Origin: a virus
IMG/VR virus record: IMGVR_UViG_3300025000_000114
Location: 1 to 58,890 of that record
Length of the DNA: 58,890 nucleotides
Direction: 5' to 3' (one strand)
Shown here: in pieces, positions 34,961 through 57,013 of the stretch
How the letters are laid out: every line of letters begins with the position of its first letter
Numbering within the stretch: position 1 is the stretch's first letter
Program-made: the position numbers and the translations under genes
The notes under the pieces: model-generated
Databases searched by the model: none
What the model was told of the DNA's origin: nothing
Seen by the model: only the letters and a program-made list of their open reading frames with translations

Positions 34961-35155
34961 TTATGATATAACCACTTTTAATTCTAGTGCTACATGTTGC
35001 TCTCGATCCATTACTCTATATTTCTCAATATCAACAACTTTATAGTTTTTATTGCTTCCTTTAATTGTTACTTCCTCACCATTTTGATAATTAGGGTTAT
35101 TGGAGGTGTATGCTGTTACTATTTCATTTTTGGAATTGTATAATAAAATATCTAA
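34961..35155 (-). CDS. Small protein without a standard start codon (about 62-64 aa)
   Basis: A coding-looking frame (LLYNSKNEIVTAYTSNNPNY, then EEVTIKGSNKNYKVVDIEKY, ending ALELKVVIS) ends at TAA 34961. AAGGAGGAG lies at 35169-35161. In this frame a stop (TAA) at 35158-35156 is followed by TTA GAT ATT TTA TTA, so no ATG, GTG or TTG is available near the ribosome site. Candidates are TTA at 35155 (7-nt spacing) or ATT at 35149 (13-nt spacing). An internal ATG lies far downstream. Gene reality is supported by the codon pattern and ribosome site; start uncertain. Confidence 0.5.
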   Translation of the reverse strand, partial: LDILLYNSKNEIVTAYTSNNPNYQNGEEVTIKGSNKNYKVVDIEKYRVMDREQHVALELKVVIS

Positions 35156-35167
35156 TTAATCTCCTCC

Positions 35168-35323
35168 TTAAACAACTTCAAATTCATTATGATAATAAAT
35201 TTCTGCTAAATCCCTTCTAGCATCAATTTCAGATAGTTTGTATTCATTCATGAATTCTTCTACTAATTTGTAGTTAAGTTTATCCATTGCTTGTAGAATG
35301 TAGTTTTCTTTGTTTGTGATCAT
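35168..35323 (-). CDS. Small helical protein (51 aa)
   Basis: ATG at 35323 after AAAGGAGGAAC. Two helices (LQAMDKLNYKLVEEFMNEY, EIDARRDLAEIYYH). Its stop lies within the ribosome site of the next small gene. Confidence 0.6.
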   Translation of the reverse strand: MITNKENYILQAMDKLNYKLVEEFMNEYKLSEIDARRDLAEIYYHNEFEVV

Positions 35324-35365
35324 TTTAATTTGTTCCTCCTTTCACCATTAAATAGAGTTTTGATG

Positions 35366-35797
35366 CTAATTTAATCTCATTCCCCAACATTTATATTCAT
35401 GATACGGAATTTCTTTTTCTTTTGATGTTACTTTTATAGACCTATCATCTACAACTTCAACAACTAACTCTTCTTTGTGATTATGATAAACAGTATCACC
35501 TACCTTAAAATCAAAATCCGTTAAATAATAGTTCAAATAATTATATCTCTCACAAAATTTATCTAGTTCATCATATGCAATTATTTCACAACTTTTATTA
35601 AAAGAAGCAAAAGAGAAAGTGATTGTTGTTTGTGAAAGTTCAAATATAAATTTATCTAAATTAACATCATTTTCTTTCTTAATATCTAAAATTTCTAACT
35701 CAAATTTCTTTCTAAAGTTTTCAATGACTGTAAAAATAGAATCTATTGATCTTATAGCATGATAATCATTATTCATTTCTATGGTTCCATTAAACAT
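35366..35797 (-). CDS. Hypothetical protein with SH3-like end (143 aa)
   Basis: ATG at 35797 after GAAAGGAAG. The C-terminal 45 residues (FKVGDTVYHNHKEELVVEVV, then SIKVTSKEKEIPYHEY) look like an SH3-type barrel. The N-terminal 95 residues are alpha/beta. No enzyme motif. Confidence 0.55.
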   Translation of the reverse strand: MFNGTIEMNNDYHAIRSIDSIFTVIENFRKKFELEILDIKKENDVNLDKFIFELSQTTITFSFASFNKSCEIIAYDELDKFCERYNYLNYYLTDFDFKVGDTVYHNHKEELVVEVVDDRSIKVTSKEKEIPYHEYKCWGMRLN

Positions 35798-36325: not shown

Positions 36326-37438
36326 TTATGCTATTAACTTCAATCCTTCATTTCTAATATTAATAGCAGCATTTATGTCTCTATTATGACTACTGCCACA
36401 TTCTGGGCATTTCCATTCCCTAACACTTAAATCTAAATCAACATATTTCCATCCACAAACATGACAAAGTTTACTACTAGCAAAATATCTATCCACAACA
36501 GAAATTTCTCTACCATACCAAATTGCTTTATAATTCAACATTGTAGTAAAACTATACCATGAAGCATCTGATATACTTTTCGCTAATTTATGATTCTTCT
36601 TCATTCCTTCAATATTAAGATCCTCTAGGCAAATAACTTGATTTTCATTGATAAGTCTAGTTGATAATTTTTGAAGAAAGTCCTTCCTAGTATTAGTAAT
36701 TTTCTCATGAAGTCTAGCCACTTTAATTCTTGCCTTGTTTCTATTTTTACTACCCTTTTTCTTCTTAGATAGTTTTCTTTGAAGTTTTACTAATTTATCT
36801 TCATATTTACGATAATATTTTGGATTATCAATAATTTCACATTCAGATGTAATAGCAAAATCTTTAATTCCCAAATCAATACCAATATTTATTTCTGATT
36901 TAGGTAATTTAATAGGCTCTGGCACTTCGCAAAGAATAGAGATAAAATATTTACCACTAGGAACCTGAGATATTGTTACATTTTTAATTATTCCAATTAC
37001 TTCTCTTGATTTAGCAAATTTAACTAAACCAAGTTTAGGAAGTTTAATTCTATTGCTTTCGATTCTAATATTATTATTTGTAAAAGTAGTACGATAAGAC
37101 TTTCTATTATCTTTTTTAGATTTGAATTTTGGAAAACCTTGATTATTATTACCTTTCTTAATTTCTCTAAAGAAATTCTGATAAGCTAAGTCTAAGTTTT
37201 TAAGAGTTTGTTGGAGAGATATACTATCAATTTCTTTAAGTCATTCAAATTCTTTTTTAAGTTGAGGTAGGAGAATAGCACATTGATTATATGTTAAAGT
37301 TTGATGATTTTCTTTATACATCTCGATCCTTTTATCTAGAAAGTAATTATAGATGAATCTATTTGAACCTAAATGTTTATTGATTAAAATTGTTTGCTCT
37401 TTGTTTGGGTATAGTCTGAATTTGAATGTTTTAAGCAA
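36326..37438 (-). pseudogene. tnpB: tnpB (IS200/IS605-type, no tnpA) with one in-frame TGA
   Basis: Starts at TTG 37438 after GGAGGTGAG. The whole frame to 36326 is open except for TGA at 37243-37241, in the sequence KKEFE-stop-LKEIDS, where TnpB relatives usually have Trp, so one TGG-to-TGA change explains it. The nuclease residues remain: GIDLGIKDFAITS, VICLEDLNIEGM, the zinc finger CHVCG/CPECG and NRDINAAINI. Without readthrough only a 65-aa fragment or an internally initiated C-terminal part (GTG 36925) would be made. No TnpA lies beside it. Confidence 0.85.
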
Positions 37439-37498: not shown

Positions 37499-37942
37499 TT
37501 ATCTCATGACTGAAGTCACGGATGTTCTTGTTGTCCACCATAAAACATCAACTTTATAATCAGCATAACTCACAGTTCTCTTCTGAAAATAAACTTTCAT
37601 ATCACTATCATCTTTAGGGGTTAACCAATAATATTTAACATTTTCACTATACTTAGGATTATTGAACCTATATTCTTGACCAGATTTAACTTTAAGATTG
37701 GATTTTGATTTATCAAATTCAATAAATGCTCCATAATCACCAATTACAATACGATTATAACCATTTGATATGAGTGTATTATTTAGACTATGTATTTTGA
37801 AATTAGTATCACCATTAATATTTAATTGTGATGGAAGATTGTCTAGATATTTTTGTCTAACTTCTTCTGATAGAGATGATTTTAGTTTGCGATATTTATA
37901 TTTTGCAGATAATTCTTCTTGGAATTGTAGTAAGTTTTCTAT
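37499..37942 (-). CDS. Hypothetical protein, probable ATA start, 3' end altered by tnpB element 1
   Basis: AAAAGGAGG is followed after 9 nt by ATA (37942-37940), then an open frame of 147 codons; the only standard starts in frame (TTG 37963, TTG 37975) lie on or before the ribosome site. The protein has FNNPKYSENVKYYWLTPKDD and DVLWW near its end. The last residues (TSVTSVMR) are read from the hairpin at the left end of the tnpB element, so the natural C-terminus was probably lost or replaced. Function unknown. Confidence 0.5.
   Translation of the reverse strand: MENLLQFQEELSAKYKYRKLKSSLSEEVRQKYLDNLPSQLNINGDTNFKIHSLNNTLISNGYNRIVIGDYGAFIEFDKSKSNLKVKSGQEYRFNNPKYSENVKYYWLTPKDDSDMKVYFQKRTVSYADYKVDVLWWTTRTSVTSVMR
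37504..37521. repeat. Left-end hairpin of tnpB element 1
   Basis: CATGACTGAAGTCACGG-type imperfect palindrome at the 5' boundary of the element; GACT/AGTC stem with flanking pairs. Such subterminal hairpins are recognised by the Y1 transposase of IS200/IS605 elements. Confidence 0.55.
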
Positions 37943-37946: not shown

Positions 37947-38109
37947 TTATTCCTCCTTTTCAATTTTACTCTCAATCTTATTAATGATTTCTAAAATTTC
38001 TATGCAAGCCTTTTTGTACCCTTTAGACCAAATATAAGTGCTTTCATTATAATGATCTTTGGAAAAATTATTAATGTGATTAATTAACCATTGTTTAAGT
38101 TCTTTCATT
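37947..38109 (-). pseudogene. Small gene with frameshift or non-standard start
   Basis: Read with one base removed from the AAA run near 38099-38101, ATG 38109 gives a 53-aa protein (MKELKQWLINHINNF ... KIESKIEKEE). As written, ATG 38109 stops after four codons. A second reading: AAAGGAGGTGATAA at about 38142-38129 precedes an ATT that runs in the correct frame but meets TGA at 38108. Either way the gene is not conventionally intact. Confidence 0.45.
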
Positions 38110-38197
38110 TATGGTTTCTCCTTTCTTTAATTTATCACCTCCTTTCTGTGATTTATATTATGATTGTTCAATGTTGATTTTATATTTTATCTTCCAT

Positions 38198-38380
38198 TTA
38201 AAATTCCTCATCCAATGCTAGTTTCCAACATTCAGAGCACATTGTATCATTACTTGCAATACATTTATTATGTTGATTTTCATTTAATCCTACAGCGTTA
38301 GGGCATACGCCAAATAGATTACTAATTTTAGAATTTGATTCTAATTGCAGATATTCTATTAATTTATCTTTTCCTGTCAT
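38198..38380 (-). CDS. Small cysteine-containing protein (60 aa)
   Basis: ATG at 38380 after AAGGAGTG. Four cysteines (GVCPNA, KCIA, MCSECW) could bind one metal ion. No family recognised. Confidence 0.6.
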   Translation of the reverse strand: MTGKDKLIEYLQLESNSKISNLFGVCPNAVGLNENQHNKCIASNDTMCSECWKLALDEEF

Positions 38381-38386
38381 TTAGAT

Positions 38387-38647
38387 TCACTCCTTAATAA
38401 ATTCTAATATATCCATCATGGCATATGTTCTTTGTGCGTCTTTTTCTACATCCCAAACATCGAGTAACCATTGGTTTTCTTTGTGGTAATCAGTACTGCC
38501 ATAGTGGATTTGTTGAGGAATAATTGTTCTGATTGATGTAATACCTTGATAATTTTTATATTTTACTTTGATTGGAGGATTTGCTGGTTTAGTTTGAATT
38601 ATGTTTTCTTTTATTGCAACATTCATTACCGAATCATTAACTGCCAT
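38387..38647 (-). CDS. WYL-like hypothetical protein (86 aa)
   Basis: I chose ATG at 38647 with AAAGG 9 nt upstream. The stretch VKYKNYQGITSIRTIIPQQI, then GSTDYHKENQWLLDVWDVEK and a final acidic helix matches the strand order of the small phage-borne WYL-like domain, a ligand/nucleic-acid-binding barrel. Stand-alone copies are common near phage metabolic genes. Function unknown. Confidence 0.6.
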   Translation of the reverse strand: MAVNDSVMNVAIKENIIQTKPANPPIKVKYKNYQGITSIRTIIPQQIHYGSTDYHKENQWLLDVWDVEKDAQRTYAMMDILEFIKE

Positions 38648-38649
38648 TT

Positions 38650-39189
38650 TTAACATCCTTTCACTTTAGCAAGTTCTTTATAAATATCTCCTATAATAAA
38701 ATCTACTACGAGATTAGTTTTATTTAATACAGTATGAGGAAATTCACCATCTTTTAAAATATCTAGAATATGACCACTAATAATTAAAGATTCTTCTTCA
38801 GTTTGCATTCTACCAACAGAGTCATATTCTCCAAGATTATTGATAAAATAATTCATATTATGATAAGTATTATGTGTTTCAACAATTAAACCTTTAAAAT
38901 TAGAAGACAAATCTTTTCCATAATATAAAGATAGAAGAAGAGGTGAATCTGTAATAATAACATCCACTTTTCCTTTAACTGTAAACATTTTATGATTTTG
39001 TTTACCGAAAATATAAATCTGATCTTCTAAGACCTTAAAACTTTCTTCCCAAACTTTACTTTTTGCATATTCAGTAACAAGTTCACAACGAATACCTTGT
39101 CTTTTTAATTCATAGAATATTCCTGCTGAAGTGGTTGATTTGCCAGCAGATGGGCCTCCAAATATATTTACGACAATAGTTTTATGCAT
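38650..39189 (-). CDS. AAA/P-loop kinase-like protein (179 aa)
   Basis: ATG at 39189. Walker A is VVNIFGGPSAGKSTTSAGIF (5-24), followed by an ELVTEYAKSKVWEE helix and Walker B VDVIITDSPLL. The E-Y-A-K and D-S-P motifs are typical of AAA_28/NadR-like ATPases, often kinases of small metabolites. Its 3' end touches the WYL-like gene. A deoxynucleotide or NAD-related substrate would fit the setting but is not shown. Confidence 0.7.
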   Translation of the reverse strand: MHKTIVVNIFGGPSAGKSTTSAGIFYELKRQGIRCELVTEYAKSKVWEESFKVLEDQIYIFGKQNHKMFTVKGKVDVIITDSPLLLSLYYGKDLSSNFKGLIVETHNTYHNMNYFINNLGEYDSVGRMQTEEESLIISGHILDILKDGEFPHTVLNKTNLVVDFIIGDIYKELAKVKGC

Positions 39190-39198
39190 TGTTTATAT

Positions 39199-39534
39199 TC
39201 ACTCCTTAACATATTCTTTAATTTCAATTCCTAATTTCTCTTCTAACCACTTTGATACTAAAAATCTATGACAGAATCCACTCTTCTCCCAACATAATAA
39301 TACAGCATTTTCACCTAATTCTTCATAGACATGTTGAGGATCTAATTTATCAAGAATTTCTTTTTGATATTGTTCAGTATAGAATTGTTTATCACCATCT
39401 TCTTTGTATTTCTTAAAGAACCAGTACGATGGGGCTAACTTTTTATATTCTCTACCTTTATACCAAGTTGGACATTTACCTGCAATTGATACAGCATTAT
39501 CTCCTTTATATTTTGCGTAGTAGGATGTTTGGAT
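39199..39534 (-). CDS. DUF488 family protein, start possibly ATC
   Basis: The pattern IQTSYYAKYKG, AVSIAGKCPTWYKG-x-EYKKLAPSYWF, then VLLCWEKSGFCHRFLVSKWLEE is the DUF488 family, a small Rossmann-like fold with a conserved CHR motif, of unknown biochemical role. AAAAGGAG ends one base before an in-frame GTG (39543), which is too close. The codon at normal distance (10 nt) is ATC at 39534, and DUF488 proteins usually begin just before 'xTSYFAK'. Either start gives a complete domain. Confidence 0.75.
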   Translation of the reverse strand: MQTSYYAKYKGDNAVSIAGKCPTWYKGREYKKLAPSYWFFKKYKEDGDKQFYTEQYQKEILDKLDPQHVYEELGENAVLLCWEKSGFCHRFLVSKWLEEKLGIEIKEYVKE

Positions 39535-39636
39535 AGTGGGCACACTCCTTTTATATAAACTTAAAGCTCCATTTATATTAGATTTAGTATACTATATAGT
39601 AATTGGATAATTGGTTAAACACCAGATGTAGTATTG

Positions 39637-40395
39637 TTAAATCCTTTCACATTTACATACTCCATCTTTATAACTTTCACAGGGAATTATTTTTCCATCA
39701 CACATCACAACTAATTTTTCTATTCCTGCTGTACATTTCCCATGTGATAAAGGAAGACCTAACTTGACAACATCTTTATATTTAGTATATAAATGATCCA
39801 TTTGCTCCTTTAAGATTCTATCATCTAATATTAAATATTGGTTGTTAACGCATCTCCCTTGATTAACTAGTTTTAATAGATTTATCTTTTTCACACCTAA
39901 ATTAATCAAATAATCTATTGTTTCTTCTAGTGTATAAATATTAATTGTCATTGGAACTATATGAACTTCGACATTCATATTAGTTTTTAATGAATATCTT
40001 AAATTAGATAAGACAGTAGAATATAAATCTTTGTTTGCAATAAAGTTAAATATATTGTTTCTATTGCTGTAAAAGGGAAAAACAATTGTATTAATATATT
40101 TGTCAAATGATAATTTTTTTATATCATTACCCCACCATCCATCTCCAGAGGTATACATTTTTACTTTTACATTTTTAGTTTGTAGATATTCTAACAGATT
40201 ATAAATATCTGGATATAATAATGGTTCTCCTCCGCTAAGATTTACCCATTCTGGATCGTATTTGTCAATAGTTTCTTTTATTATGTTAATATCTAATTTA
40301 TCTAGCTCGTCATTATAGTTAGAACTTGCATTAGTAGAGCAATGCAGACAATTATTAAAACATTTATTAGTTAGTTCAAACGTTATCTCTTTTAT
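39637..40395 (-). CDS. Radical SAM enzyme, probable ATA start
   Basis: CFNNCLHCS (CxxxCxxC, the 4Fe-4S site) near residue 12, then NLSGGEPLLYPD (GGEP motif), VKMYTSGDGWW, and a C-terminal CTAGIEKLVVMCDGKIIPCESY with further cysteines, a short SPASM-like end. AAAAGGAG is followed 9 nt later by ATA (40395), giving a start KEITFELTNKC close to the cluster as in relatives; the in-frame TTGs at 40425/40422 lie upstream of the ribosome site. Substrate unknown; neighbours are DUF488 and dCMP deaminase. Confidence 0.75.
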   Translation of the reverse strand: MKEITFELTNKCFNNCLHCSTNASSNYNDELDKLDINIIKETIDKYDPEWVNLSGGEPLLYPDIYNLLEYLQTKNVKVKMYTSGDGWWGNDIKKLSFDKYINTIVFPFYSNRNNIFNFIANKDLYSTVLSNLRYSLKTNMNVEVHIVPMTINIYTLEETIDYLINLGVKKINLLKLVNQGRCVNNQYLILDDRILKEQMDHLYTKYKDVVKLGLPLSHGKCTAGIEKLVVMCDGKIIPCESYKDGVCKCERI

Positions 40396-40429
40396 ATTGA
40401 TCAACTCCTTTTCAAATGTCAACAAATGT

Positions 40430-40906
40430 TTATTTCGAAGTATTACTTAAAGTAATCTCTATCTTACAATCACTAATTAATTGTCTATATTTTACTTCTG
40501 CCATATTTAGAATAAATCTAGAAGCAATTGTTTGTTCCATATCCTTATATTTATCACTTAGATATACTACTTCAGATATTCCAGATTGAACAATTGTTTT
40601 AGAACACTCATTACAAGGAAATAATGTGGAGTAAAGAATACATCCATTTAAATTATTTTTAGCATAAAGTATAGAATTTTGCTCTGCATGAATGACATAT
40701 AGATATTTTCCTTCTAATCCTTCTTTTGATTCCCAAGGCATTTCTGAATCATTGCATTTGTTAGGCATTCCATTGTAACCAGTTGATATGATCCGATGAT
40801 TAGTGTCCACTATACATGCTCCTACTTGTGTTCTTGGATCTTTGCTACGCAATGATGATATGTACGCAACGCTCATGAAATAATCATCCCAATTTATTAT
40901 TTGCAT
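40430..40906 (-). CDS. dCMP deaminase
   Basis: About 158 residues; ATG at 40906 with AAAGGA upstream. Zinc and catalytic motifs: VIHAEQNSILYA (HAE) and STLFPCNECSKTIVQ (PCxxC), preceded by DPRTQVGACIVD and GYNGMP, characteristic of ComEB/dCMP deaminases. It converts dCMP to dUMP, the substrate of ThyX. An upstream in-frame codon extends the frame into the tnpB element 2 end, so the insertion lies just before this gene and may have replaced its promoter. Confidence 0.92.
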   Translation of the reverse strand: MQIINWDDYFMSVAYISSLRSKDPRTQVGACIVDTNHRIISTGYNGMPNKCNDSEMPWESKEGLEGKYLYVIHAEQNSILYAKNNLNGCILYSTLFPCNECSKTIVQSGISEVVYLSDKYKDMEQTIASRFILNMAEVKYRQLISDCKIEITLSNTSK

Positions 40907-40959
40907 TTGGTTTTGTAGTCCTTTCTGTGAGGGGGTAGGAGAGATATATTTCAATCTCT

Positions 40960-41119
40960 GCTACTAAAAATATAGACAAATATACTCAATTATCTATATC
41001 TAGATAATTGCTGATTCATAGTGTCTGTTTTTGTATTATTTCTAACACTACTCACATTTGGTGTAACACTCCACAGCCGTAAATTCCCGACTAGCCATCG
41101 GTATTTGATAATATTTGTT
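40960..41119 (-). ncRNA. Right end of tnpB element 2, probable omega/reRNA region
   Basis: After the tnpB stop, the transcript strand reads ATGGCTAGTCGGGAATTTAC and GTGTTACACCAAATGTGAG near 41100-41045, resembling the structured 3' ends of IS607-type tnpB transcripts. A perfect TATCTAGATA-type repeat lies near 40990-41010. The boundary toward the dCMP deaminase is uncertain. Confidence 0.45.
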
Positions 41120-42299
41120 TTAAGCAACTTTAAATACTTTAGCATTCTTCAAATTTACACTTGCATTTTTATCACGATCAAGAATCATTCCACATTCTTT
41201 ACAAATATATTCTCTATCTGAAAGTTTCAAATCCCTATCTATAGCACCACATTCACTACACATTTTACTTGAAGGAAAATATCTATCAACAATTCTTAAC
41301 TCAATATTATTCCATGAACATTTATATGTTAATTGCCTTCTAAACTCATGAAAACTTTGTTCGGCGACTGCTTTAGATAAATGCCTATTCTTCATCATCC
41401 CCTTGACGTTCAAGTCTTCGATCACTATATACTCTGGTTTGTTTTTCACCAGAATATTTGTGATTTGATGAGCATAATTTAAACGAATATTGGATAATTT
41501 TTGATAAATAGTTCTGATTTGAGCTTCTAACTTGATAATGTTTTTAGTTTTAATGAACTTCTTGCCATCTTTGTTCATTTCGTATTTTTTAGAGACTTGA
41601 CGTTGAAGTCTTCTTAATTTTCTTTTAAGTTTCTTTACAGCAATAGTCTTATTGATATTTTTGAATGGTTTATCAATATTGCTGATAATTGCCAAATCCT
41701 TAACCCCTAAGTCAATTCCAATTCCTTCATTACTAACATTTGAATAATTATTATTGTCTACAATATCACACAGTACAGAAACATAATACCTTCCTGCTTT
41801 CATTGAAACAGTACCACTTACTACTTTTGCATTGGTTGGAATATATCCTTTTTCTTTCAGTTCGACAAATCCTAAAGTTGGAATTTGTATTTTATGACGT
41901 TTAACAGTCCAGTCACCCTTCCCATTCTTAGGAAAATAGATATTAACATCTTGATTTTTCTTCTTCTTGAATCTAGGGAATTTAGCTTGCCCCCTTAAAG
42001 AATCTTTTATATGCCATTTCTGCATTTACGATTGCTTTCTTTCTTGCCTTTGACCCACAATTATCAATCCATTTGAATTCATCTAATACTTTTACTTCAT
42101 TATTAATATATTTATCAAAATCATTGGCACTCATAAACGCTTGTTTCTTGTCAATCTTACCTTCTTTGTATAATTTATAAAGTTCTTGATTCTTAGTTAA
42201 ATAAGAATTATAGAGGAAGCGACATATGCCAATTGATTGATGAATTTTATTAATATGAATTTCGGTTACTCTGAGTTCAGTTTTAAATCCTTTGAGCAT
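41120..42299 (-). pseudogene. tnpB: tnpB of an IS607-like element, single-base frameshift
   Basis: ATG 42299 (GGAAGGTAGT upstream) opens a frame (MLKGFKTELRV ... AEMAYKRFFKG) that goes out of phase in a run of five G at about 41990-41994. The other frame continues QAKFPRFKKKKNQD to the end at 41120; four G would restore one protein of about 390 aa. RuvC residues (GIDLGVKDLAII, YIVIEDLNVKGM, DRDKNASVNL) and the zinc finger CSECG/CKECG are intact. This may be a pseudogene, a slippage site or a sequencing error. Confidence 0.85.
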
Positions 42300-42467
42300 A
42301 CTACCTTCCTCCCTTCATTAAATAATTTTAAATGTTCATCTGTATAATAACGTCTGTCAGTAGGTGTTCTAAATTCTTTTAATTTACCTTTCTATATCAC
42401 ATCTTTGATGCGTTTTGACTGACACACCTAACATTTCTGCAAAATCATGTGGTTTATAATTGCTCAT
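42300..42467 (-). pseudogene. tnpA: Remnant of IS607 serine recombinase tnpA
   Basis: After GGGAGGTTGAG, ATG 42467 reads the MerR-type start of IS607 TnpA (SNYKPHDFAEMLGVSVKT), then loses frame. A neighbouring frame continues GKLKEFRTPTDRRYYTDEHLKLF and runs into the tnpB start. The whole catalytic serine-recombinase domain is missing. The element can therefore no longer move by its own transposase. Confidence 0.75.
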
Positions 42468-46747: not shown

Positions 46748-46987
46748 TTACTTCCAGTGATTATTCTTCTTTAGAATATCAACAACCTCATCAGCATAAT
46801 CAACATCAACATTAATAACAAGATATTTATTTCCTGTATTCTTATTGAATTTATATCTACTGATTCTAATATTTTTAAGTATTCTAGCTAAATCTGTCCT
46901 ATCTTGTTCTGAAGCATGTTTAATCACATCTTCTTGTTTAATGACAATGTATTTATTGAAGTCTGCACCACTTAAATTAACACTCAA
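46748..46987 (-). CDS. Hypothetical protein (79 aa)
   Basis: GAAGGTGG precedes an overlapping GTG (46999) and an in-frame TTG (46987); the TTG has usable spacing. Alpha/beta composition (NKYIVIKQEDVIKHA, NKYLVINVDVDYADEVVDIL), resembling a small ferredoxin-like fold. No motif. Confidence 0.55.
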   Translation of the reverse strand: MSVNLSGADFNKYIVIKQEDVIKHASEQDRTDLARILKNIRISRYKFNKNTGNKYLVINVDVDYADEVVDILKKNNHWK

Positions 46988-47006: not shown

Positions 47007-47171
47007 CTATTTTAAATAACCATTAATTCTTTTATCATAAAGATATTCACCTAATGATGAACTTAATAAGTTTGCAAATATTCTCAATTCCTCTAATTGT
47101 TTAAAATTTAGAACAGGATAATTATTGAGTAACGGTTTCATTTGTTCGACAATATATATTTCTCTGATTAT
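47007..47171 (-). CDS. Small protein with probable ATA start (54 aa)
   Basis: GAAGGTGATAC is followed by ATA (47171), which overlaps the stop of the preceding gene (ACATAATC, where ATGA would be usual). The open frame reads REIYIVEQMKPLLNNYP, then QLEELRIFANLLSSSLGEYLY to TAG 47007. The first standard start is an internal ATG (47141) without a ribosome site. Helical protein, function unknown. Confidence 0.45.
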   Translation of the reverse strand: MIREIYIVEQMKPLLNNYPVLNFKQLEELRIFANLLSSSLGEYLYDKRINGYLK

Positions 47172-47374: not shown

Positions 47375-47572
47375 TTAATCTTCCATCCTTTCATTTTTAA
47401 TTTCTGACATTTCATTATCAAATACTTCAATTGCCACCTTTTTGTAATAATGACCTTTATTAGTGTCTTGATCTACAATGAATGCGTAATTAACTTTATC
47501 TGTATAGTTTTTCTCATACTCTTCAGAAGTGCACTGAATCCAATCACCATCTCTACCATGTAAAATTTTAAT
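47375..47572 (-). CDS. Small protein with probable ATT start, relative of the gene at 47709
   Basis: AGAGGTGATACAT leads to ATT (47572) at 8-nt spacing, then KILHGRDGDWIQCTSEEYEKN ... KGHYYKKVAIEVF, 65 aa. The neighbour at 47709 has the same build (NRIDGKWTTCTSQEYNSQDKA ... TYYKKIG) and starts with ATG at about the same place, which supports this start. The frame stays open further upstream but crosses a hairpin and has no ribosome site. Unknown function. Confidence 0.55.
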   Translation of the reverse strand: MKILHGRDGDWIQCTSEEYEKNYTDKVNYAFIVDQDTNKGHYYKKVAIEVFDNEMSEIKNERMED

Positions 47573-47592
47573 ATGTATCACCTCTTTTGATT

Positions 47593-47645
47593 TAGCAAGA
47601 ATTTGATTAGTGGTATTAATAAGATATGTGATCAAATTCTTGCTA
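47593..47645 (-). promoter_or_regulatory. 15-bp inverted repeat before the gene at 47375
   Basis: TAGCAAGAATTTGAT (47593-47607) and its exact complement (47631-47645), loop 23 nt. It lies directly upstream of the AGAGGTG ribosome site, between two related small genes. It could be an attenuator, RNA-processing site or operator. Confidence 0.55.
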
Positions 47646-47708
47646 ATATTTATTTTATGCTTATGTATGTTAATTATGTCAAGATTATTGAATAATAGAA
47701 TATAGATA

Positions 47709-47855
47709 TTAACCGATTTTCTTATAATAAGTAGTGATATTTGTGTCATTATTTTTGCTGAACATGAAGTTTGCTTTGTCTTGGGAATTGTATTCTTGAG
47801 AAGTGCATGTAGTCCATTTTCCGTCGATGCGATTGATGAGTTTTGTGGGGTTCAT
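47709..47855 (-). CDS. Small protein (48 aa), paralog of the gene at 47375
   Basis: ATG at 47855 after GAGGAGGTG, 31 nt downstream of a consensus promoter. MNPTKLINRIDGKWTTCTSQ, ending TYYKKIG, aligns with the next gene. The G-x-W-x-x-C-T-S-x-E-Y motif is conserved between the two, suggesting a small fold with a functional Cys or aromatic surface. Confidence 0.6.
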   Translation of the reverse strand: MNPTKLINRIDGKWTTCTSQEYNSQDKANFMFSKNNDTNITTYYKKIG

Positions 47856-47885: not shown

Positions 47886-47914
47886 ATTATAGCATGTGGG
47901 GAATGTGGTGTCAA
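47886..47914 (-). promoter_or_regulatory. Consensus sigma-A promoter
   Basis: Minus-strand TTGACA (47914-47909), 17-bp spacer, TATAAT (47891-47886). It starts a transcript just after the RecD-like gene, likely feeding the small genes and perhaps nrdJ. Confidence 0.88.
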
Positions 47915-50182: not shown

Positions 50183-50198
50183 TTATTTACCCTGCTTT

Positions 50199-53100
50199 CT
50201 AATATACATCATAGTTGATAAGTATCTCTTCGTCCTCATCTGACTTCATCCACTTGCCGCCAACGTTCTTTGTCTTCTTTTGAGTTTTGAATTCATTGAC
50301 TTTTAAGACATCGTACAACTTGAAGGGGTTTTGGGAGAATATCTTGCCATCCTTGATTTTTGTCTTCATTTCTTTGCCATTATTTATTTGGCGTAATGTG
50401 ACATATGGTTTAGTTTTATCCTTATATACTTCATACTTAATAATTATATAAAAACTATCTCCTGCTCCTTCATTGATATACTTAACATATTCTAAATAAT
50501 CCATTTCAAATTTAACTTGATCTTTAATTGACATTGATTTGTCTTCTATAGTTTGAATAACTTCTCTGACATATCCTATCATATCTAATTCTTTATAAAG
50601 TGTTTCAGTTGTTTTATTACTATATTTTTTTAATGTATCTTCATTAATATTTAGTTTTGCAATATCTTTGAAATTTATTTGTTTACGACTTGCAAAAGTA
50701 TCATATATTTCAATTATTTGAAGAAGTTTTTTATTCTTGCCAAATTTTTTAAAGAAATCTAGTCCAGTTAATATTTTTAGCTGTCTTGAATTAGTTGAAG
50801 TATTTTTTATATCTTGCAATAGAGTTATAAAATTAGTATATTTAGTTTGTTGTGCTAAATTATATAACTCTATTGCCACTTGACCATTGAGAAATTTAAT
50901 TGAAGTTATAGATTTATAAATTGTATTTGTTTTCCTATCAAATGAATATGTATCTATTGAATTTCCAAATTCAATGTCTGATAATTTAATATTAAAATAA
51001 GGTAATTCTTCAAGAATCTTATGAGTTTTTTCTGTATCGGAATCATATTCATTTAATATAACCGTGTAGTATTCTAAGGGATAATTTGCTTTTAAATAAG
51101 CCCCATATAAACTATCCCAAGCTACAGAAAGGCTGTGACTGGCATTAAAAGAATATTTCGAGGCATCATTGACAACTTGCCATACATCCTCAAACTTTTC
51201 ATCATTACCTACGTTTTTTATATATCCTGCAATTAATTCACTTTTAAGTTCTGCAATCTCTTCTTCTTTAAATTTCTTTTTTGCAATCTTTTTGATGATG
51301 TCGTAAGTATGATCTTCTTTAAGTCCACACCATACAAGAAATGCCATAATAGATTCTTGATAAAGCATGAAATGATATGATGGTTCTAGAATATCATCTA
51401 TTTCTTTAACTCCTGTTGAATATTCATTTCTCTCTAAAAATGTATTAAGTAAACTTGCGAACCCTGGCCTAATGGCAGCTACAAAACCAGAAATTTCTGC
51501 TACATTAATGGGGCAGTATCTTTTAACAAAAGTCGTACTTAAATCTGTGTCAACTTGATTAAGAGTTGCTGTCAATCCATTTTTATATAAATCCCAAACC
51601 TTATCATTAAGGAGTTTTTTTAGTTCTCGAATATTCGGAATTGGTTTATCAAGTAATTTGAAAGTATCTGATACAATTTTCCAAACTTTTACAGTAAGAA
51701 AATCATTTTTAAGATATTTCCAATTATCGGATGTATACCCATCAATACATGCACAAATTTGATCCCCTACTCTTAGCAATCCTAATTCTTTAGATATTGG
51801 TTTGTTCAACATAACAAAACTACATGGACTAGGAGATATACTATCTATTACTCCTATAAACTTTTTGGATTCTTCAATTAAATCTTTCCATTGTGGATCT
51901 TTAACGTATTTCTCAACATCTTTACCAACTTCATTGTATTGATCCATTGGCATATCATATGCTCTACATAGGTTTCTAAAAGCAGAAGACTCTTTCATAG
52001 TTCCTATGGCATACATATAGTAAACATTGTCTTCTCCTAAAATATCTTTAGATGCTTTAATTGGAGCTTCTACGTCTGCCCAATTAAAATCTATATCGGG
52101 CAAACTTTTAGATTCAAGAATTCTTGAAACAGTCATAAATCTTGAAGGATATAGAGGAACTTCAGATTCAAATCTATCTATTTCTGTGAATCCTAGAAGT
52201 TTATTTACATAGAAGCTAACCGCACTGCCACGTCCCGTTCTAGTAAGAATTCCATCATATACATTAACTGCCCTATCAATAATTCTTTCATTTAATAAAA
52301 AATAATCTGCCATATCTGTATCTTTAATGGTATTATATTCAAATGCGATTCCGTCTTGATATTCCTTATGTCTTTTTGGATCAATATTTTTCTTTTCTTC
52401 TTCCCATTTTTCTAAAATAATTGATTTAAGTTTTTTATTAGAATCTTCATTGGGATAAATTGTTGGCATTTTAATATCTTTTGTGAAAATTAAATCTTCA
52501 CATTGATCGAATATTAATGTATTATTTAGTGACTGGATAATTTGATTACTTGATAAGACATTTTGATCTTTATATCTTTCAACGATAGTATCATAATCAG
52601 GATAATCTAAGATAAATCCTTCTTCCTCTTCATATCTTAAACCCTTTCCTCTTAGAAATAAATCTCTATCATGTCTTTGTTCTGGATAGATATAGTGAGA
52701 GTCGTTGGCATGAATAATTGGAATATTAAATTCTCTAGCTAATTTAGTTATTTTTAAATTATGTATAACTTGAATTTGATGAGCATGCGCTTGTGTTTCT
52801 AGATAAAAATTATTACCAAAATGTTTTGCTATAGGTTCTAAAAATATATTTGTAGCATCTTCATCTCTTAATATTCCTGCAACACAAGCAGATGTAACTA
52901 TAAAATTGTTTGGATTTAATGAAAGCAATAAGTTTAAATCGATTCTTGACTTATAATAAAATCCTGTCTTATTTGATTCAGACATTATCTCATTTAATTG
53001 ATAAAAAGCATCTTGATTTTTACCAATAATAATAATATGGCTATTTCTATTGTCTTTTTCAAATCTATCTTTTACAATATAAAGTTCTGCCCCAAAAATC

Positions 53101-53291
53101 ATTTTAATATCATTCTTTTGGCATAAATCATACATTTCTAAAAAGTTACCGCCCCACCCATGTTGAGTTGTAAATAGGGTGGTATGATTTAATTCTTTTG
53201 CTCTGTCTATATAATCTTGTGGTCTTACTATACAATCCAATGTCTTAACATTCGAGTAGTGACAATGTTTATGGTAATTATTATATCTCAT
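50199..53291 (-). CDS. dnaE: DNA polymerase III alpha subunit, DnaE type
   Basis: A 1030-residue protein, ATG at 53291 after AGGAGGATAA. The N-terminal PHP domain retains several metal-type residues (NYHKHCHYSN; TTQHGWGGN; ACVAGILRDEDA; HANDSHYIYPEQ). The catalytic palm has LTRTGRGSAVSFYVNKLLG (about 349-367) and LPDIDFNW with Asp399 and Asp401. A tandem HhH region and finger segment follow. Somewhat shorter than chromosomal DnaE. It would copy the element with the DnaB-like helicase and primase encoded beside it. Confidence 0.92.
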   Translation of the reverse strand: MRYNNYHKHCHYSNVKTLDCIVRPQDYIDRAKELNHTTLFTTQHGWGGNFLEMYDLCQKNDIKMIFGAELYIVKDRFEKDNRNSHIIIIGKNQDAFYQLNEIMSESNKTGFYYKSRIDLNLLLSLNPNNFIVTSACVAGILRDEDATNIFLEPIAKHFGNNFYLETQAHAHQIQVIHNLKITKLAREFNIPIIHANDSHYIYPEQRHDRDLFLRGKGLRYEEEEGFILDYPDYDTIVERYKDQNVLSSNQIIQSLNNTLIFDQCEDLIFTKDIKMPTIYPNEDSNKKLKSIILEKWEEEKKNIDPKRHKEYQDGIAFEYNTIKDTDMADYFLLNERIIDRAVNVYDGILTRTGRGSAVSFYVNKLLGFTEIDRFESEVPLYPSRFMTVSRILESKSLPDIDFNWADVEAPIKASKDILGEDNVYYMYAIGTMKESSAFRNLCRAYDMPMDQYNEVGKDVEKYVKDPQWKDLIEESKKFIGVIDSISPSPCSFVMLNKPISKELGLLRVGDQICACIDGYTSDNWKYLKNDFLTVKVWKIVSDTFKLLDKPIPNIRELKKLLNDKVWDLYKNGLTATLNQVDTDLSTTFVKRYCPINVAEISGFVAAIRPGFASLLNTFLERNEYSTGVKEIDDILEPSYHFMLYQESIMAFLVWCGLKEDHTYDIIKKIAKKKFKEEEIAELKSELIAGYIKNVGNDEKFEDVWQVVNDASKYSFNASHSLSVAWDSLYGAYLKANYPLEYYTVILNEYDSDTEKTHKILEELPYFNIKLSDIEFGNSIDTYSFDRKTNTIYKSITSIKFLNGQVAIELYNLAQQTKYTNFITLLQDIKNTSTNSRQLKILTGLDFFKKFGKNKKLLQIIEIYDTFASRKQINFKDIAKLNINEDTLKKYSNKTTETLYKELDMIGYVREVIQTIEDKSMSIKDQVKFEMDYLEYVKYINEGAGDSFYIIIKYEVYKDKTKPYVTLRQINNGKEMKTKIKDGKIFSQNPFKLYDVLKVNEFKTQKKTKNVGGKWMKSDEDEEILINYDVY

Positions 53292-53301
53292 ATTTATCCT
53301 C

Positions 53302-54453
53302 CTAATCCATCAAATCCTTCATCCACGACAAATCCTCTTCATCTACTTTACTATCTTTATTATTAAACATCTCTAAAGTATCAAGATATGCCTTATATGG
53401 TGCGTGAATTTTTGCTGAATAACCATTCAAATTCGCCAAGAAATAACTTTCTGTATCTGTAACATCTTGCCACCATATTTTATTATCCAATGTATTTTTA
53501 TATTCAACTTGCTTAACCTTAATCTCTTCAACTGTCTTTACAATATCATCTAATAATTCTTGAATTGATTCATCATCTAGCGATATTTCAACATAACAAT
53601 CTTTAACTACAAATTTACTCTTTACATCACCAGGTAAACATTCTATTGAATTGTCAACTACCATTTTATTAAGATAATCATCTATTTCTTCTTCGCTGAA
53701 TTTACTATCTGATTTCTTTAACCACATCTTAGCATTTGATGATAAACTACTTCCTATAGCATTTCTTTCAACGATTCTACTTTTTAATTTGCCATTAGCT
53801 TGCATACATTCTACTTCTACATATTTAAGGAACGCCCATCTAGCAATAATTTGATCCATCGGTATGTTTAGTTTTTTGTGGACACCATAACTATAAAGTA
53901 GAAGTTGACCTTGCTCTTTCTCTATTTTTTTACCTTTATACAAGGAGCTTGTTTTCCAATCTGTGATTACGCAGATATCTTTATCTTCTCTTTTTTCCAT
54001 ATGTATAGCATCTACATAAGCCTGTATTAGTATATTATTTATCTTTATTGGAACAAAGACTTCAAGTTTCAATTTATGAGGTATTCGTTGATGATTTTTA
54101 AAGAAGTGTCTCATACATGATTCATATTTATTTCCTATTTTTTTATTTTTGTCTTCATCACTTCTATCATATTTTAGATTGCCAATAGTAAATTCAAATA
54201 GTTTTTCTTCAAATATTTCTATCATATCGGCGTAGGATATTTCTTTATTATAATATTTTTCTAATATATCATGAGAAGCGTTACCAAATACCCCGTATAT
54301 TGAATCTTTTCTGTCCTCTGGTATTTTAAGAATATATCGTAAGAAGAAAGTATAAGTGTCTCCTTTGTATTGGTTATATTTTGACCATGAATATATTTCA
54401 TCACAATCTAATTTATTAGCTATTAATCTAATTTCTTCGCCTGTTTTACGCAT
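53302..54453 (-). CDS. PD-(D/E)XK exonuclease, RecB/Cas4-like
   Basis: A 383-residue protein; ATG 54453 (GAGGAGATTATAAC upstream) overlaps the HNH gene by 8 nt. Motifs: WSKYNQYKGDTYTFFLRYI (N-terminal helix), VFGNASHDILEKYY (GxxxHxxLE type), then IQAYVDAIH, VITDWKTS (D-x-K) and GQLLLYSYGVHKKL (QxxxY). This is the RecB-family nuclease layout found in phage replication clusters. Probably acts with the RecD-like helicase in end processing or recombination. Confidence 0.8.
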   Translation of the reverse strand: MRKTGEEIRLIANKLDCDEIYSWSKYNQYKGDTYTFFLRYILKIPEDRKDSIYGVFGNASHDILEKYYNKEISYADMIEIFEEKLFEFTIGNLKYDRSDEDKNKKIGNKYESCMRHFFKNHQRIPHKLKLEVFVPIKINNILIQAYVDAIHMEKREDKDICVITDWKTSSLYKGKKIEKEQGQLLLYSYGVHKKLNIPMDQIIARWAFLKYVEVECMQANGKLKSRIVERNAIGSSLSSNAKMWLKKSDSKFSEEEIDDYLNKMVVDNSIECLPGDVKSKFVVKDCYVEISLDDESIQELLDDIVKTVEEIKVKQVEYKNTLDNKIWWQDVTDTESYFLANLNGYSAKIHAPYKAYLDTLEMFNNKDSKVDEEDLSWMKDLMD

Positions 54454-55174
54454 TAGTTATAATCTCCTCTTTATCTATATCTTGAAATGTACATTGCCTA
54501 TGAGTTTTTCTTTTACCTGCTAAACACTTATTAACATTAGCTTGTATTAAATCATATTTTTTACATATATCAGTTATTAAACCTATGTCACTTTCTCCAG
54601 AAGGTAAATTTATTTTAATGTATCTGTTACTTCTTTTATTTCTTGAATTTTCACTTCTTGTTACTATTCTAATATTTTCTTCTTCATAATTACCATTGTT
54701 ATCAATTCTGTCTACTTCATATATTTTATGATTTTGTAATAAATCTTCATACTTATCAACATTTTGTAAATAATCAATGAAATATTCAAAGCACAGCCAA
54801 TTTTCTGAAACGAATATTCCTCTCCCTCCATAATCAATATAACTTTTAGTTGATGGATTGTAACATCTCTCTAACATTTGTTTCCAATGGGGATATAATT
54901 TATGGCGAGAAGACATATTACCCAAACACCCAACTCCACAAACTGCACCGTAATAATATGGATTTTTCAAAGTTCCGTTTTTTATATTATGATGTCTAGC
55001 CGATAATTGCGTACCATCATCAAATTCTACCAAAAAGGTATGATAATTACGGCGTTTTTCTATCATACCAACAATTCTACATATACCATAATTATTTGTT
55101 TCCCATAAACTACCGTTATAATATGTAACGGAGGTGTTAGCTATTAATTGAATTTCTTCAAATTGTTTTCTCAA
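54446..55174 (-). CDS. HNH-type homing endonuclease-like protein
   Basis: About 242 residues; TTG 55174 (GAGAGGGAC upstream) chosen, which overlaps the primase stop by 17 nt. After an N-terminal strand domain come YPHWKQMLERCYNPSTKSY and YGGRGIFVSENWLCFEYFI, then YEVDRIDNNGNYEEENIRIV, the motif order of a common phage HNH-like family. A helix-turn-helix-like end (GLITDICKKYDLIQANVNKCL) follows. Probably a free-standing homing nuclease lodged inside the replication operon. Confidence 0.75.
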   Translation of the reverse strand: MRKQFEEIQLIANTSVTYYNGSLWETNNYGICRIVGMIEKRRNYHTFLVEFDDGTQLSARHHNIKNGTLKNPYYYGAVCGVGCLGNMSSRHKLYPHWKQMLERCYNPSTKSYIDYGGRGIFVSENWLCFEYFIDYLQNVDKYEDLLQNHKIYEVDRIDNNGNYEEENIRIVTRSENSRNKRSNRYIKINLPSGESDIGLITDICKKYDLIQANVNKCLAGKRKTHRQCTFQDIDKEEIITNA

Positions 55175-56243
55175 GTCTTTTGTCCCTCTCTTTAATATAT
55201 TTTTTATGTTCTGAGTCATCATATACAACTCTATGTTTTAGTAAATATCTATATACTTTCTCAGGTTTATCTGCTGGCGATTCTTTTTCTTCTAGTAATC
55301 CATATTTATCGAACACATAACTTACGGTACGGATTCCATAGAATTTATCGCACATACTTCTAATATGTTGTAAGGAAACATCTTTGTCCATACAAATAAT
55401 TATTTCTGTATTAAGAGAAATCAATATTTTTACTTGTTCCTCAGATATATCATGTGATCCTATAGACACACCAGTTCCATCTTTTCTACTATGTCTTTTT
55501 AATGTTGATTTCTCCGATTCAAACGCAACAACTCTATTTTCTTCTTGAATAGTCTTATAGTTTTCTTGCAATCCGTATAAATGTATTGATTTTGGAAACT
55601 TTTTTAAAGGAAAATATTTAGGAATGTCTAACATTTTATATTCAGGAATTGTGGTTCTCCCAATCACTCCAACAAAATCATTTTCATCACCGCACCAATA
55701 CCTCCAGGGAATTATAATTCTTTTCTTTTCTGCACTATAACCAATTTTAAATACTTCACAGGTAAAAGGAAGAATACCATCTATTCTTATCCAATCAATA
55801 TGAGGTAATGGAATATACTCCTTGATAATCTCATTGTCATACAACTCAATGTCGTCAATGTTTACAATGCATCTTTTTCTTTTAACCTTTTTGAATACAT
55901 TTAATGGATCTTTCTTATCAGGTTTATCTTGTTTATTAGTTTTAAATTTATATTCTAAACCAAATAATTCATGTAAATATTTATTAGCTTTTGAAAATGA
56001 AATATTTTTTATAGTTTGGCAAAGAGTAAATATATCTCCTCTTATTATTTCACCATCAGATTGAAATATTTTAGTAGAAAGTGTTTCTTTGTTTATTGCA
56101 ATATTATTATTTGATGCATGTTCGGGTAAACCAGACCTATATTCTTTTGTATATTCTTTAATACCATGACAATTTAGGGATTTAAGTACTTCTTGTGTTT
56201 TATCATTGTCTAATATGTATTGTTTAAGCTCAATATAATCCAT
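55158..56243 (-). CDS. DnaG/TOPRIM-type primase
   Basis: A 361-residue protein, ATG 56243 after GTAGGTG. The N-terminal part (GDIFTLCQTIKNISFSKANKYLHELFG) is like the zinc/CHC2 lead-in of phage primases but with a reduced cysteine set. The TOPRIM domain has VVAFESEKSTLKR (Glu) and IIICMDKDVSLQHI (DxD) followed by a KESPADK end. No fused helicase: the DnaB-like protein is separate. It would make primers for the DnaE polymerase. Confidence 0.8.
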   Translation of the reverse strand: MDYIELKQYILDNDKTQEVLKSLNCHGIKEYTKEYRSGLPEHASNNNIAINKETLSTKIFQSDGEIIRGDIFTLCQTIKNISFSKANKYLHELFGLEYKFKTNKQDKPDKKDPLNVFKKVKRKRCIVNIDDIELYDNEIIKEYIPLPHIDWIRIDGILPFTCEVFKIGYSAEKKRIIIPWRYWCGDENDFVGVIGRTTIPEYKMLDIPKYFPLKKFPKSIHLYGLQENYKTIQEENRVVAFESEKSTLKRHSRKDGTGVSIGSHDISEEQVKILISLNTEIIICMDKDVSLQHIRSMCDKFYGIRTVSYVFDKYGLLEEKESPADKPEKVYRYLLKHRVVYDDSEHKKYIKERDKRLEKTI

Positions 56244-56263
56244 TCAAGTATATTCACCTACCT

Positions 56264-57013
56264 TTACTTAACTATTTTTGCATCAAATCCATATTTTTCA
56301 TATAAATGACTATTGTTAAAATTTTTTATTTTTATCTCCTCCTTTAATCTTGCTATAATAGCATCATCTAATTCATCAAAATAACCTAAATGTTTTTTCT
56401 TTCCATAAAATATCTGTGAATGCCATTTATTCATCTGTTTGTTAAAATAAACTCCTTGGCAACCACTACTATTATTTATATTTGGGTTCCTATTAACATT
56501 ATTTTGTCTGTGATCTGTAGTTCTGAGATTATATTTACGATTATTACTTTTTTGTCTATCGATATGATCAACTTCTATTTCTGGATTATTGACTCCCATA
56601 ATAAGCCTATGTATTCTAATTGTTTGTTTTTCATCTTCATCATTTTCTGATATACTAGAAACAATATATCCTCGTTTGTTTTTATGCCAACAATATACTT
56701 GTATCTTATCATAGTCTTCTAAATCAAATTCAAAGTAATTATTTCTAAAATCATAACCTATACCATATTCACCAGTTAAATCATATGTATTAGTTTTGCT
56801 ACACCTAGCAATATTAACTTCTTTTTGCAAACATCCACAACTTCGAGTATTTCCATTTCTTAAACTAGTGCCATTTACTGTAAATATAGTTTTAAGAGGA
56901 CAACTACATTGAACAATCCAATGACACACCCTATGTTTATTAATGTGAGAAAACTCTAAAACTAATAATCTATCAAATGTTTTCCCTTTTAAATCAATTA
57001 TTTTTCCCCATAT
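56264..57013 (-). CDS. HNH endonuclease with AP2 domain; start is ATA or frameshifted ATG
   Basis: Coding similarity extends upstream to IDLKGKTFDRLLVLEF, the usual start of this phage HNH family, then WIVQCSCPLKTIF and RSCGCLQKE (Cys-rich), IRIHRLIMG, VDHIDRQKSNNRKYNLR (HNH) and an AP2 domain (GCQGVYFNKQMNKWHSQI). AAGGAG lies at 57024-57019. ATG 57011 is in the wrong frame by one base of an A5 run, whereas ATA 57013 is in frame without any change. The conservative first standard start is GTG 56929, which would cut off part of the N-terminus. Confidence 0.75.
   Translation of the reverse strand: MWGKIIDLKGKTFDRLLVLEFSHINKHRVCHWIVQCSCPLKTIFTVNGTSLRNGNTRSCGCLQKEVNIARCSKTNTYDLTGEYGIGYDFRNNYFEFDLEDYDKIQVYCWHKNKRGYIVSSISENDEDEKQTIRIHRLIMGVNNPEIEVDHIDRQKSNNRKYNLRTTDHRQNNVNRNPNINNSSGCQGVYFNKQMNKWHSQIFYGKKKHLGYFDELDDAIIARLKEEIKIKNFNNSHLYEKYGFDAKIVK

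What the first reader, a model, noticed from the sequence alone, without database searches (positions are those of the whole stretch)
34961..57013. Repeated isoleucine (ATA/ATT/ATC) initiation codons behind good ribosome sites
At least five minus-strand genes lack ATG/GTG/TTG at normal distance from a good Shine-Dalgarno sequence and have an Ile codon there: 37942 ATA (AAAAGGAGG, 9 nt), 40395 ATA (radical SAM, AAAAGGAG, 9 nt), 47171 ATA, 47572 ATT (8 nt) and 39534 ATC (DUF488). 57013 ATA (HNH) and 35155/35149 TTA or ATT are weaker cases. Homology or a paralog supports several of these start positions. In bacteria, AUU/AUA/AUC starts are rare and are discriminated against by IF3. Random errors would rarely hit start codons while leaving polymerase, helicase and reductase frames open. 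It could mean IF3-sensitive translational control of a gene set, or altered initiation in the host.
Basis: partly seen in the sequence, partly recalled or inferred. Interest (0 to 1): 0.75.

Follow-up and report, generated by a model that had tools for sequence, protein, structure and literature searches.

The report
Isoleucine start codons in clostridial-type phages
A family of large phages appears to begin several of its genes at isoleucine codons (ATA, ATT, ATC) instead of the usual ATG, behind strong ribosome-binding sites, which probably keeps those proteins scarce; the trick is known for a few bacterial genes but seems unusually common here.

Summary
Largely real. Over 18.7 kb the window is identical to three other IMG/VR contigs, so random errors are unlikely. 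Relatives put the Ile codon on the start position of the genes at 37942 (ATA in three divergent contigs, one copy broken later), 39534 (ATC also in a 72%-identical relative, ATG in others) and 47572 (ATT/ATA in 15 of 19 hairpin-linked contigs; several have an in-frame stop nine bases upstream and no standard start near). Site 35155 is TTA; relatives have ATA, TTG or GTG. Site 47171 is more likely ATC 47168, supported only by a shared leader. Radical SAM 40395 is plausible, unconfirmed. HNH 57013 is a one-base frameshift beside an ATG.

Across 22 related contigs, aligned start positions swap between NTG and ATA/ATT/ATC in ten families (16 of 453 sites, against 0 of 347 in two control phage sets). 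A paralogue just upstream of 47572 keeps ATG in 20 of 20 contigs, so the trait is gene-specific rather than global relaxed initiation. Best reading: weak near-cognate starts behind strong Shine-Dalgarno sites attenuate particular accessory genes, as for infC, ccpN and cvfC1. IF3 dependence is inferred. No phage IF3, initiator tRNA or ATA reassignment was found.

The parts
37499..37942 (-). 147-aa gene of unknown function, ATA start at 37942
   Evidence: ATA at the same place in L052 and L053 (146 aa, intact) and L054 (frame breaks after 19 codons), behind different upstream DNA; L053 and L054 have no in-frame NTG back to the upstream stop
37952..37960 (-). SD AAAAGGAGG, 9 nt before ATA 37942
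   Evidence: sequence
39199..39534 (-). DUF488-like gene, ATC start at 39534
   Evidence: PF22751 E 1.1e-8; ATC also in G008 (71.6% aa identity), ATG in L043-L047 at the same residue; a GTG overlapping the SD is in frame at -9 in both ATC copies
39545..39552 (-). SD AAAAGGAG before ATC 39534
   Evidence: sequence
39637..40395 (-). radical SAM gene, probable ATA start at 40395 (TTG at 40404, 40422 or 40425 not excluded)
   Evidence: PF04055 E 6e-11; SD AAAAGGAG; no relative informative at the N-terminus
40405..40412 (-). SD AAAAGGAG before ATA 40395
   Evidence: sequence
47375..47572 (-). 65-aa gene, ATT start at 47572
   Evidence: ATT/ATA in 15 of 19 hairpin-linked contigs, ATG in 4; in L059, L061, L063, L066, L067, L069, L072, L073 an in-frame stop 9 nt upstream excludes any upstream NTG
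47577..47584 (-). SD GAGGTGAT before ATT 47572
   Evidence: sequence
47592..47646 (-). 16-bp hairpin with 23-nt loop ending 7 nt before the SD of 47572
   Evidence: fold z -4.7; 98.7% of cells paired in 15 sequences, 3 pairs with changes on both sides, reached by 6 of 500 shuffles
47709..47855 (-). 48-aa paralogue upstream, ATG start at 47855 (internal control)
   Evidence: ATG in 20 of 20 contigs (hits of 55% identity or more)
47886..47914 (-). perfect sigma-70-type promoter TTGACA-17-TATAAT with TG, ahead of the paralogue
   Evidence: consensus scan only; 8 promoter-like sites in the 701 bases against 4.7 expected, this one 12 of 12
47007..47168 (-). 53-aa ORF, possible ATC start at 47168 (rather than ATA 47171)
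   Evidence: leader shared with six contigs in which ATT or ATC follows, but ahead of a different protein
46748..46987 (-). 79-aa gene, TTG start at 46987 in the window; its homologues in six contigs start at ATT (3) or ATC (3)
   Evidence: N-termini differ in length, homology read from the printed translations
34961..35155 (-). 64-aa gene, start position 35155, codon TTA in the window
   Evidence: same position ATA in G008, G010, G012, G013 and G017, GTG in G005, TTG in G014 and G015, ATT without SD in G006
35163..35169 (-). SD AAGGAGG before TTA 35155
   Evidence: sequence
56264..57013 (-). HNH endonuclease; ATG at 57011 out of frame because of one extra G in the run 57006-57009
   Evidence: alignment with L004, 93.5% identical; phrog_99 E 7e-36

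Best explanation
The window is part of a large phage (one contig holding it is 230 kb, from a clade related to clostridial phages) in which certain accessory genes truly begin at near-cognate codons, AUA, AUU or AUC and once UUA, placed about 7-9 nt after a strong Shine-Dalgarno sequence. The host's ordinary initiator tRNA (CAU) is expected to pair with them with a third-position mismatch; the strong SD holds the 30S subunit there long enough, and initiation is inefficient. The result is low expression of those proteins, very likely sensitive to IF3 as for infC and other weak-start genes. Shown: codon, SD, conserved position, swapping with NTG among orthologues, gene-specificity. Inferred: decoding as fMet, low output, IF3 sensitivity, benefit to the phage.
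For: Aligned start positions switch between NTG and ATA/ATT/ATC in ten families; 16 of 453 NTG+ATH sites against 0 of 347 in C. difficile and Lactococcus phage sets, Fisher p 1.3e-4, sites not independent. No in-frame NTG between the upstream stop and the conserved protein in eight 47572 relatives, two of 37942 and the ATA copies of 35155. In family 35155 no contig of nine has ATG at the start position; 37942 is ATA in 4 of 4 (one copy broken); 47572 is ATT/ATA in 15 of 19 while the adjacent paralogue is ATG in 20 of 20. SD matches are longer at Ile starts than at ATG starts (20 sites, mean 6.35, against 467, 5.75; one-sided p 0.028). Spacing peaks at 8-9 nt, as for ATG at 7-9. ATA is not read as Met internally.
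Against: No expression data. Control phages and a Clostridium chromosome also show a few such sites (7 Ile of 137 strong-SD starts in C. difficile phages, 2 of 83 in Lactococcus phages, 1 of 59 in the chromosome), so the trait is not exclusive, and the excess in the clade by that survey is modest (43 of 451; p 0.03-0.12). Some Ile-start copies are broken further on (37942 in L054; 47572 in G010 and G011). DUF488 and sporadic cases could be drift. Several Ile-start genes have an in-frame GTG or TTG overlapping or just before the SD.
Confidence: 0.72

Rival explanations
1. Global relaxed initiation: the host (or the phage during infection) has lax IF3 or an altered initiator tRNA, so ATG drifts freely to ATH.
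For: Ten families show ATH in some contigs; TTA and CTG also appear at aligned start positions.
Against: Gene-specific clustering: paralogue 20 of 20 ATG beside 47572 15 of 19 ATT/ATA; no phage IF3 or initiator tRNA in the records searched; the only host proxy has a CAU initiator-type tRNA and an ordinary-looking infC.
Confidence: 0.1
2. The true starts are ordinary GTG/TTG/ATG codons elsewhere in frame, for example the GTG inside GGAGGTG or an upstream ATG.
For: In-frame NTG exists upstream at 47572 (GTG -9, TTG -63, ATG -177), 39534 (GTG -9), 40395 (TTG -9, -27, -30) and 37942 (TTG -21, -33); the GTG at -9 of DUF488 is also present in G008.
Against: For 47572 and 37942, relatives lack these codons (upstream stop or shifted frame) and keep the Ile codon; the upstream NTGs of 47572, 37942 and 39534 have SD matches of 3 or less in the window; orthologues put ATG, GTG or TTG exactly at the Ile position.
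Confidence: 0.12
3. Sequencing or assembly errors at start codons.
For: Metagenomic contig; the 57013 case is an indel.
Against: 100% identity in three other contigs over 18.7 kb and the same non-standard codons in divergent relatives.
Confidence: 0.03
4. The genes are decaying, having lost their start codon.
For: HNH has a frameshift at its start, TnpB an in-frame stop; the 37942 homologue in L054 stops after 19 codons and the 47572 homologues in G010 and G011 are in pieces.
Against: Open frames with conserved SD, spacing and Ile codon in the other contigs, 59-94% identical in protein; the one 35155 relative whose match is cut short (G010) is an exception among nine.
Confidence: 0.05

Closest known systems
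infC AUU/AUA/AUC start (IF3 autoregulation)
   Same: Ile-codon start behind a strong SD; the Clostridium MAG reads GGAGGTGAAAAAT ATT at the expected place
   Different: Single cellular gene with a known feedback; here several unrelated phage genes and no known feedback
ccpN (AUA) and cvfC1 (AUU) with extended SD, S. aureus and relatives (PMC13009471, abstract and passages seen)
   Same: Conserved non-canonical start with extended SD that lowers initiation, shown there by ribosome profiling and reporters
   Different: Handful of chromosomal genes; here a phage clade with codon swapping among orthologues
sigR GTC start, Streptomyces, IF3-repressed (PMC5472188, passages seen)
   Same: Weak start used for attenuation
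   Different: GTC, other host, IF3 effect demonstrated
AUU start of orf28 in Streptococcus thermophilus phage TP-J34 (PMC3952083, one passage seen)
   Same: Phage gene with predicted AUU start, sequence re-checked by the authors
   Different: One of 60 orfs; no comparative evidence in the passage

Membership tests
Genes with non-canonical (near-cognate) start codons in Bacillota | Ile codon at the start position, no usable NTG | tested here: met
   for 47572, 37942 and the ATA copies of 35155; 39534 has an in-frame GTG overlapping the SD
Genes with non-canonical (near-cognate) start codons in Bacillota | strong or extended SD at 5-11 nt | tested here: met
Genes with non-canonical (near-cognate) start codons in Bacillota | conservation of the codon among relatives | tested here: met
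   37942 4 of 4 and 47572 15 of 19; 39534 2 of 8 contigs (5 ATG; L048, 36% identical, ATG one codon upstream); 40395 not testable
IF3-regulated start codons (infC type) | expression rises when IF3 is low or the codon is changed to AUG | not testable with these tools
   needs experiment
Altered genetic code, ATA read as Met | internal ATA aligns with Met in homologues | tested here: not met
   M in 2.8% of 498 ATA positions against 3.0% of 702 ATT and 27.3% of 256 ATG (six window genes)
Phage-encoded initiation machinery | IF3 or initiator tRNA gene on the phage | tested here: not met
   IF3_C in 0 of 11 clade records; of 12 records searched for tRNA, only G001 and G002 have one, odd and not of initiator type; most records are fragments

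The most novel reading that the evidence does not exclude
A phage lineage uses Ile-codon starts as a regulon-wide dial: a set of accessory genes is kept low by IF3 discrimination and released when the IF3:ribosome ratio falls during infection or starvation, so the phage senses the state of the host's translation machinery.
Probability: 0.12. Interest if true: 0.85.

Novelty: new variant of a known kind. Interest (0 to 1): 0.52.

Why it matters
Gene finders that allow only ATG, GTG and TTG misplace or miss these starts; in a C. difficile phage record, two annotated starts lie on a GTG inside the SD where an ATA or ATT follows at normal distance. A clade in which homologous genes swap between NTG and ATA/ATT/ATC is a natural experiment on start-codon strength and IF3 discrimination, which the papers I saw describe for a handful of bacterial genes, and the neighbouring ATG paralogue is a built-in control.

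Tried and rejected
Altered code (ATA = Met): rejected. Phage initiator tRNA: the one tRNA on the 230-kb contig has an 8-nt anticodon loop, is called Thr, and has none of the initiator features I recall. Phage IF3: none in the 11 clade records searched. Window sites ATT 25463 (minus strand) and ATT 4228 (plus strand): an ATG lies two codons downstream, and for 25463 the relatives keep that ATG, so not counted. Radical SAM relatives: too distant to place the N-terminus. No match of window 38000-58000 (megablast) or of the 47572 protein (tblastn) in 50,697 phage records. Host: inferred only from a related phage contig (DNA polymerase 74-75% identical, 141-base end repeat) in a Clostridium MAG.

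Limits of the counts: my gene caller and SD score are home-made. The survey needs an SD match of 7 or more and missed 47572 and 35155 in G002, so its counts there are lower bounds. In one search, 53 clade sites, 3 C. difficile and 4 Lactococcus sites were dropped as 'shifted' (an NTG with SD within five codons), hits under 45% or over 97% identity or covering less than half were dropped, and ten clade sites with other codons (most in the hairpin or one codon off) are not counted as starts; 1 CTG and 1 TTA are also outside the 16 of 453. The two C. difficile ACG sites (one gene) and one Lactococcus TGA are likewise outside the 0 of 347. Sites within a family are not independent. The 19 hairpin-linked contigs leave out G015, where the hairpin precedes another gene; L067 and L073 are near-copies of G017 and G011; the ATG of G020 is followed by a one-base insert that puts it out of frame with the conserved body.
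Full report
Setting. The window is an IMG/VR virus record of 58,890 bases. It matches a 230,300-base contig (G002) from 103,305 to 162,028 at 99.9% or better, and three contigs, G002 among them, are 100% identical to it over 18.7 kb. The DNA polymerase is 48-51% identical to those of Geobacillus virus E3 and C. difficile phages. A related phage (polymerase 74-75%, end repeat of 141 bases) sits in a Clostridium MAG, so the host is probably clostridial; this is an inference.

Observation. For 37942, three divergent relatives also have ATA, each behind its own SD in different upstream DNA, and two of them have no in-frame NTG back to the preceding stop; one of the three, L054, breaks after 19 codons. 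For 39534 (DUF488), ATC is shared with G008 at 71.6% protein identity, and L043-L047 have ATG on the same residue; L048 (36% identical) has ATG one codon earlier. For 47572, 15 of 19 contigs found by the upstream hairpin have ATT (13) or ATA (2) and four have ATG (G006, G014, G020, L005). Two of the 19 are near-copies of others (L067, L073), the G020 ATG is out of frame with the conserved body through a one-base insert, and the copies in G010 and G011 are in pieces. Two further homologues without that hairpin match have ATA (G007) and ATT (G015). In eight of the relatives examined, GAGGTGA(A/T)TACATATT places an in-frame stop nine bases before the ATT, so no upstream NTG can be used, and the next in-frame NTG downstream is 141 nt or more away, or absent within 150 nt. 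For 35155 the window has TTA where relatives have ATA, TTG or GTG at the same distance from AAAGGAG(G); ATG occurs at that position in none of the nine contigs compared. The radical SAM gene at 40395 has no informative relative. The HNH case at 57013 is a one-base insertion next to an ATG, seen against L004.

The 47171 case. No clade contig gave a clear homologue of this ORF (one weak partial match). Its leader AAGAAGGTGATACATA is shared by six contigs (one with a C in place of the last T), where ATT (3) or ATC (3) follows at the 47168 position, but the protein behind it there is a homologue of the window's next gene, which starts TTG at 46987. So the leader keeps its Ile codon ahead of two different proteins, and the 46987 gene itself is TTG here and ATT or ATC in six relatives.

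Is it more than chance? In G002, 103 of 305 called genes have an SD match of 7 or more; 82 have NTG in reach, 10 have a weaker NTG, 8 have only an Ile codon and 3 have neither. Three consecutive in-frame codons hold an Ile codon 25% of the time, so 8 of 11 has P = 0.0013; seven of the eight lie at 8-9 nt. In the 22-contig clade, aligned start positions with SD are ATG 376, TTG 43, GTG 18, ATA 12, ATC 3, ATT 1, CTG 1, TTA 1, 53 shifted and 10 others (518 in all); in three C. difficile phages ATG 114, TTG 32, GTG 4, ACG 2, 3 shifted; in three Lactococcus phages ATG 161, TTG 28, GTG 8, TGA 1, 4 shifted. ATH is 16 of 453 against 0 of 347 (p 1.3e-4; sites are not independent, and the 16 fall in ten families). 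One pair is 96% identical in protein yet ATC in G012 and TTG in G017. The Ile-start copies of the ten families that I translated, one or two each, are open for 53 to 176 codons.

The trait is not exclusive. The single-genome survey, which does not need orthologues, finds 43 Ile of 451 strong-SD starts in the clade, 3 of 74 in the Clostridium MAG phage, 7 of 137 in C. difficile phages, 2 of 83 in Lactococcus phages, 1 of 59 in E3 plus Perkons, and 1 of 59 in 318 kb of the MAG chromosome. The C. difficile seven are ATA in a 479-aa frame of two phages and a 500-aa frame of the third, ATT in a phosphatase gene of two, and ATA in a 206-aa frame of two, of which one has an ATG two codons upstream. 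The clade excess is modest by this measure (p 0.046 against the chromosome, 0.030 against Lactococcus phages, 0.12 against C. difficile phages).

Gene-specific or global? Directly upstream of 47572 lies a 48-aa paralogue with ATG at 47855, behind a 12-of-12 promoter match. It has ATG in 20 of 20 contigs (two near-copies among them), while 47572 has ATT or ATA in most of the same genomes. A host that reads all near-cognate codons well would not give this contrast. This favours selection for weak initiation in particular genes. SD matches are also longer at Ile starts (20 sites, mean 6.35) than at ATG starts (467 sites, 5.75; one-sided p 0.028), the expected compensation.

Regulatory context of 47572. 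A 16-bp hairpin with a 23-nt loop (47592-47646) ends seven bases before the SD; it is paired in 98.7% of cells over 15 sequences with three pairs changed on both sides (6 of 500 shuffles reach this). It accompanies both ATT/ATA and ATG members, so it is not part of the start-codon trait; a role in mRNA stability is a guess.

Machinery. ATA is not read as Met inside genes. The clade records searched have no IF3 gene (0 of 11; the 351-kb contig G023, fetched for its DUF488, has one) and no initiator tRNA. In the Clostridium MAG, infC reads ATT behind GGAGGTGAAAAAT (that this is the start is by analogy with known infC genes) and a CAU initiator-type tRNA is present (the C1 x A72 mismatch and GGG/CCC stem are read by me from the printed sequence, the criteria recalled).

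Literature. Passages of PMC13009471 report AUA (infC, ccpN) and AUU (cvfC1) starts with extended SDs in S. aureus, with reporter tests for non-canonical against AUG starts; passages of PMC5472188 report IF3 repression of a GTC start of sigR; one passage of PMC3952083 reports one AUU among 60 orfs of phage TP-J34. The other listings showed by title and start of abstract no paper on a phage clade with recurrent Ile starts; the library lacks most subscription papers.

Verdict. Real, conserved, gene-specific near-cognate initiation: a known kind of translational attenuation, unusually frequent in this phage clade. Decoding as fMet, low output and IF3 sensitivity remain inferences.

Noticed in passing
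window 36326-37438 (-): TnpB-like gene (TTG start at 37438) is interrupted by an in-frame TGA at codon 66.
   Followed up: partly
window 43193-46459 (-): Ribonucleotide reductase frame of 1088 aa with an apparent intein: LAGLIDADG match above, splicing-domain match below its Pfam cut-off.
   Followed up: no
L074 1501-1573 (-), G001/G002 contig: Single tRNA-like gene with an 8-nt anticodon loop, called Thr(AGT) by ARAGORN; decoding unclear.
   Followed up: partly
G002 53449 (+): 526-aa frame with ACG eight bases after AAAGGAGGTGA and no NTG in reach; an ACG start also appears in a 529-aa gene of two C. difficile phages where a third has ATG.
   Followed up: partly
L124 10526-10538 and L123 19019-19031 (C. 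difficile phage OR397124): Annotated start lies on a GTG inside the SD; ATA or ATT follows at normal spacing, so these starts are probably misannotated.
   Followed up: partly
L132 (G023, 351-kb contig IMGVR_UViG_3300024259_002152): A phage contig that encodes an IF3-like protein (PF00707, E 2e-14).
   Followed up: no
G024 contig C58 61962 (+): 541-aa frame in a Clostridium MAG chromosome with ATT behind AAAGGAGGTG.
   Followed up: no
G002 170718 (-): 49-aa frame with ATA here, TTG in G005 and G010 and ATG in G008 at the aligned position; outside the window.
   Followed up: partly
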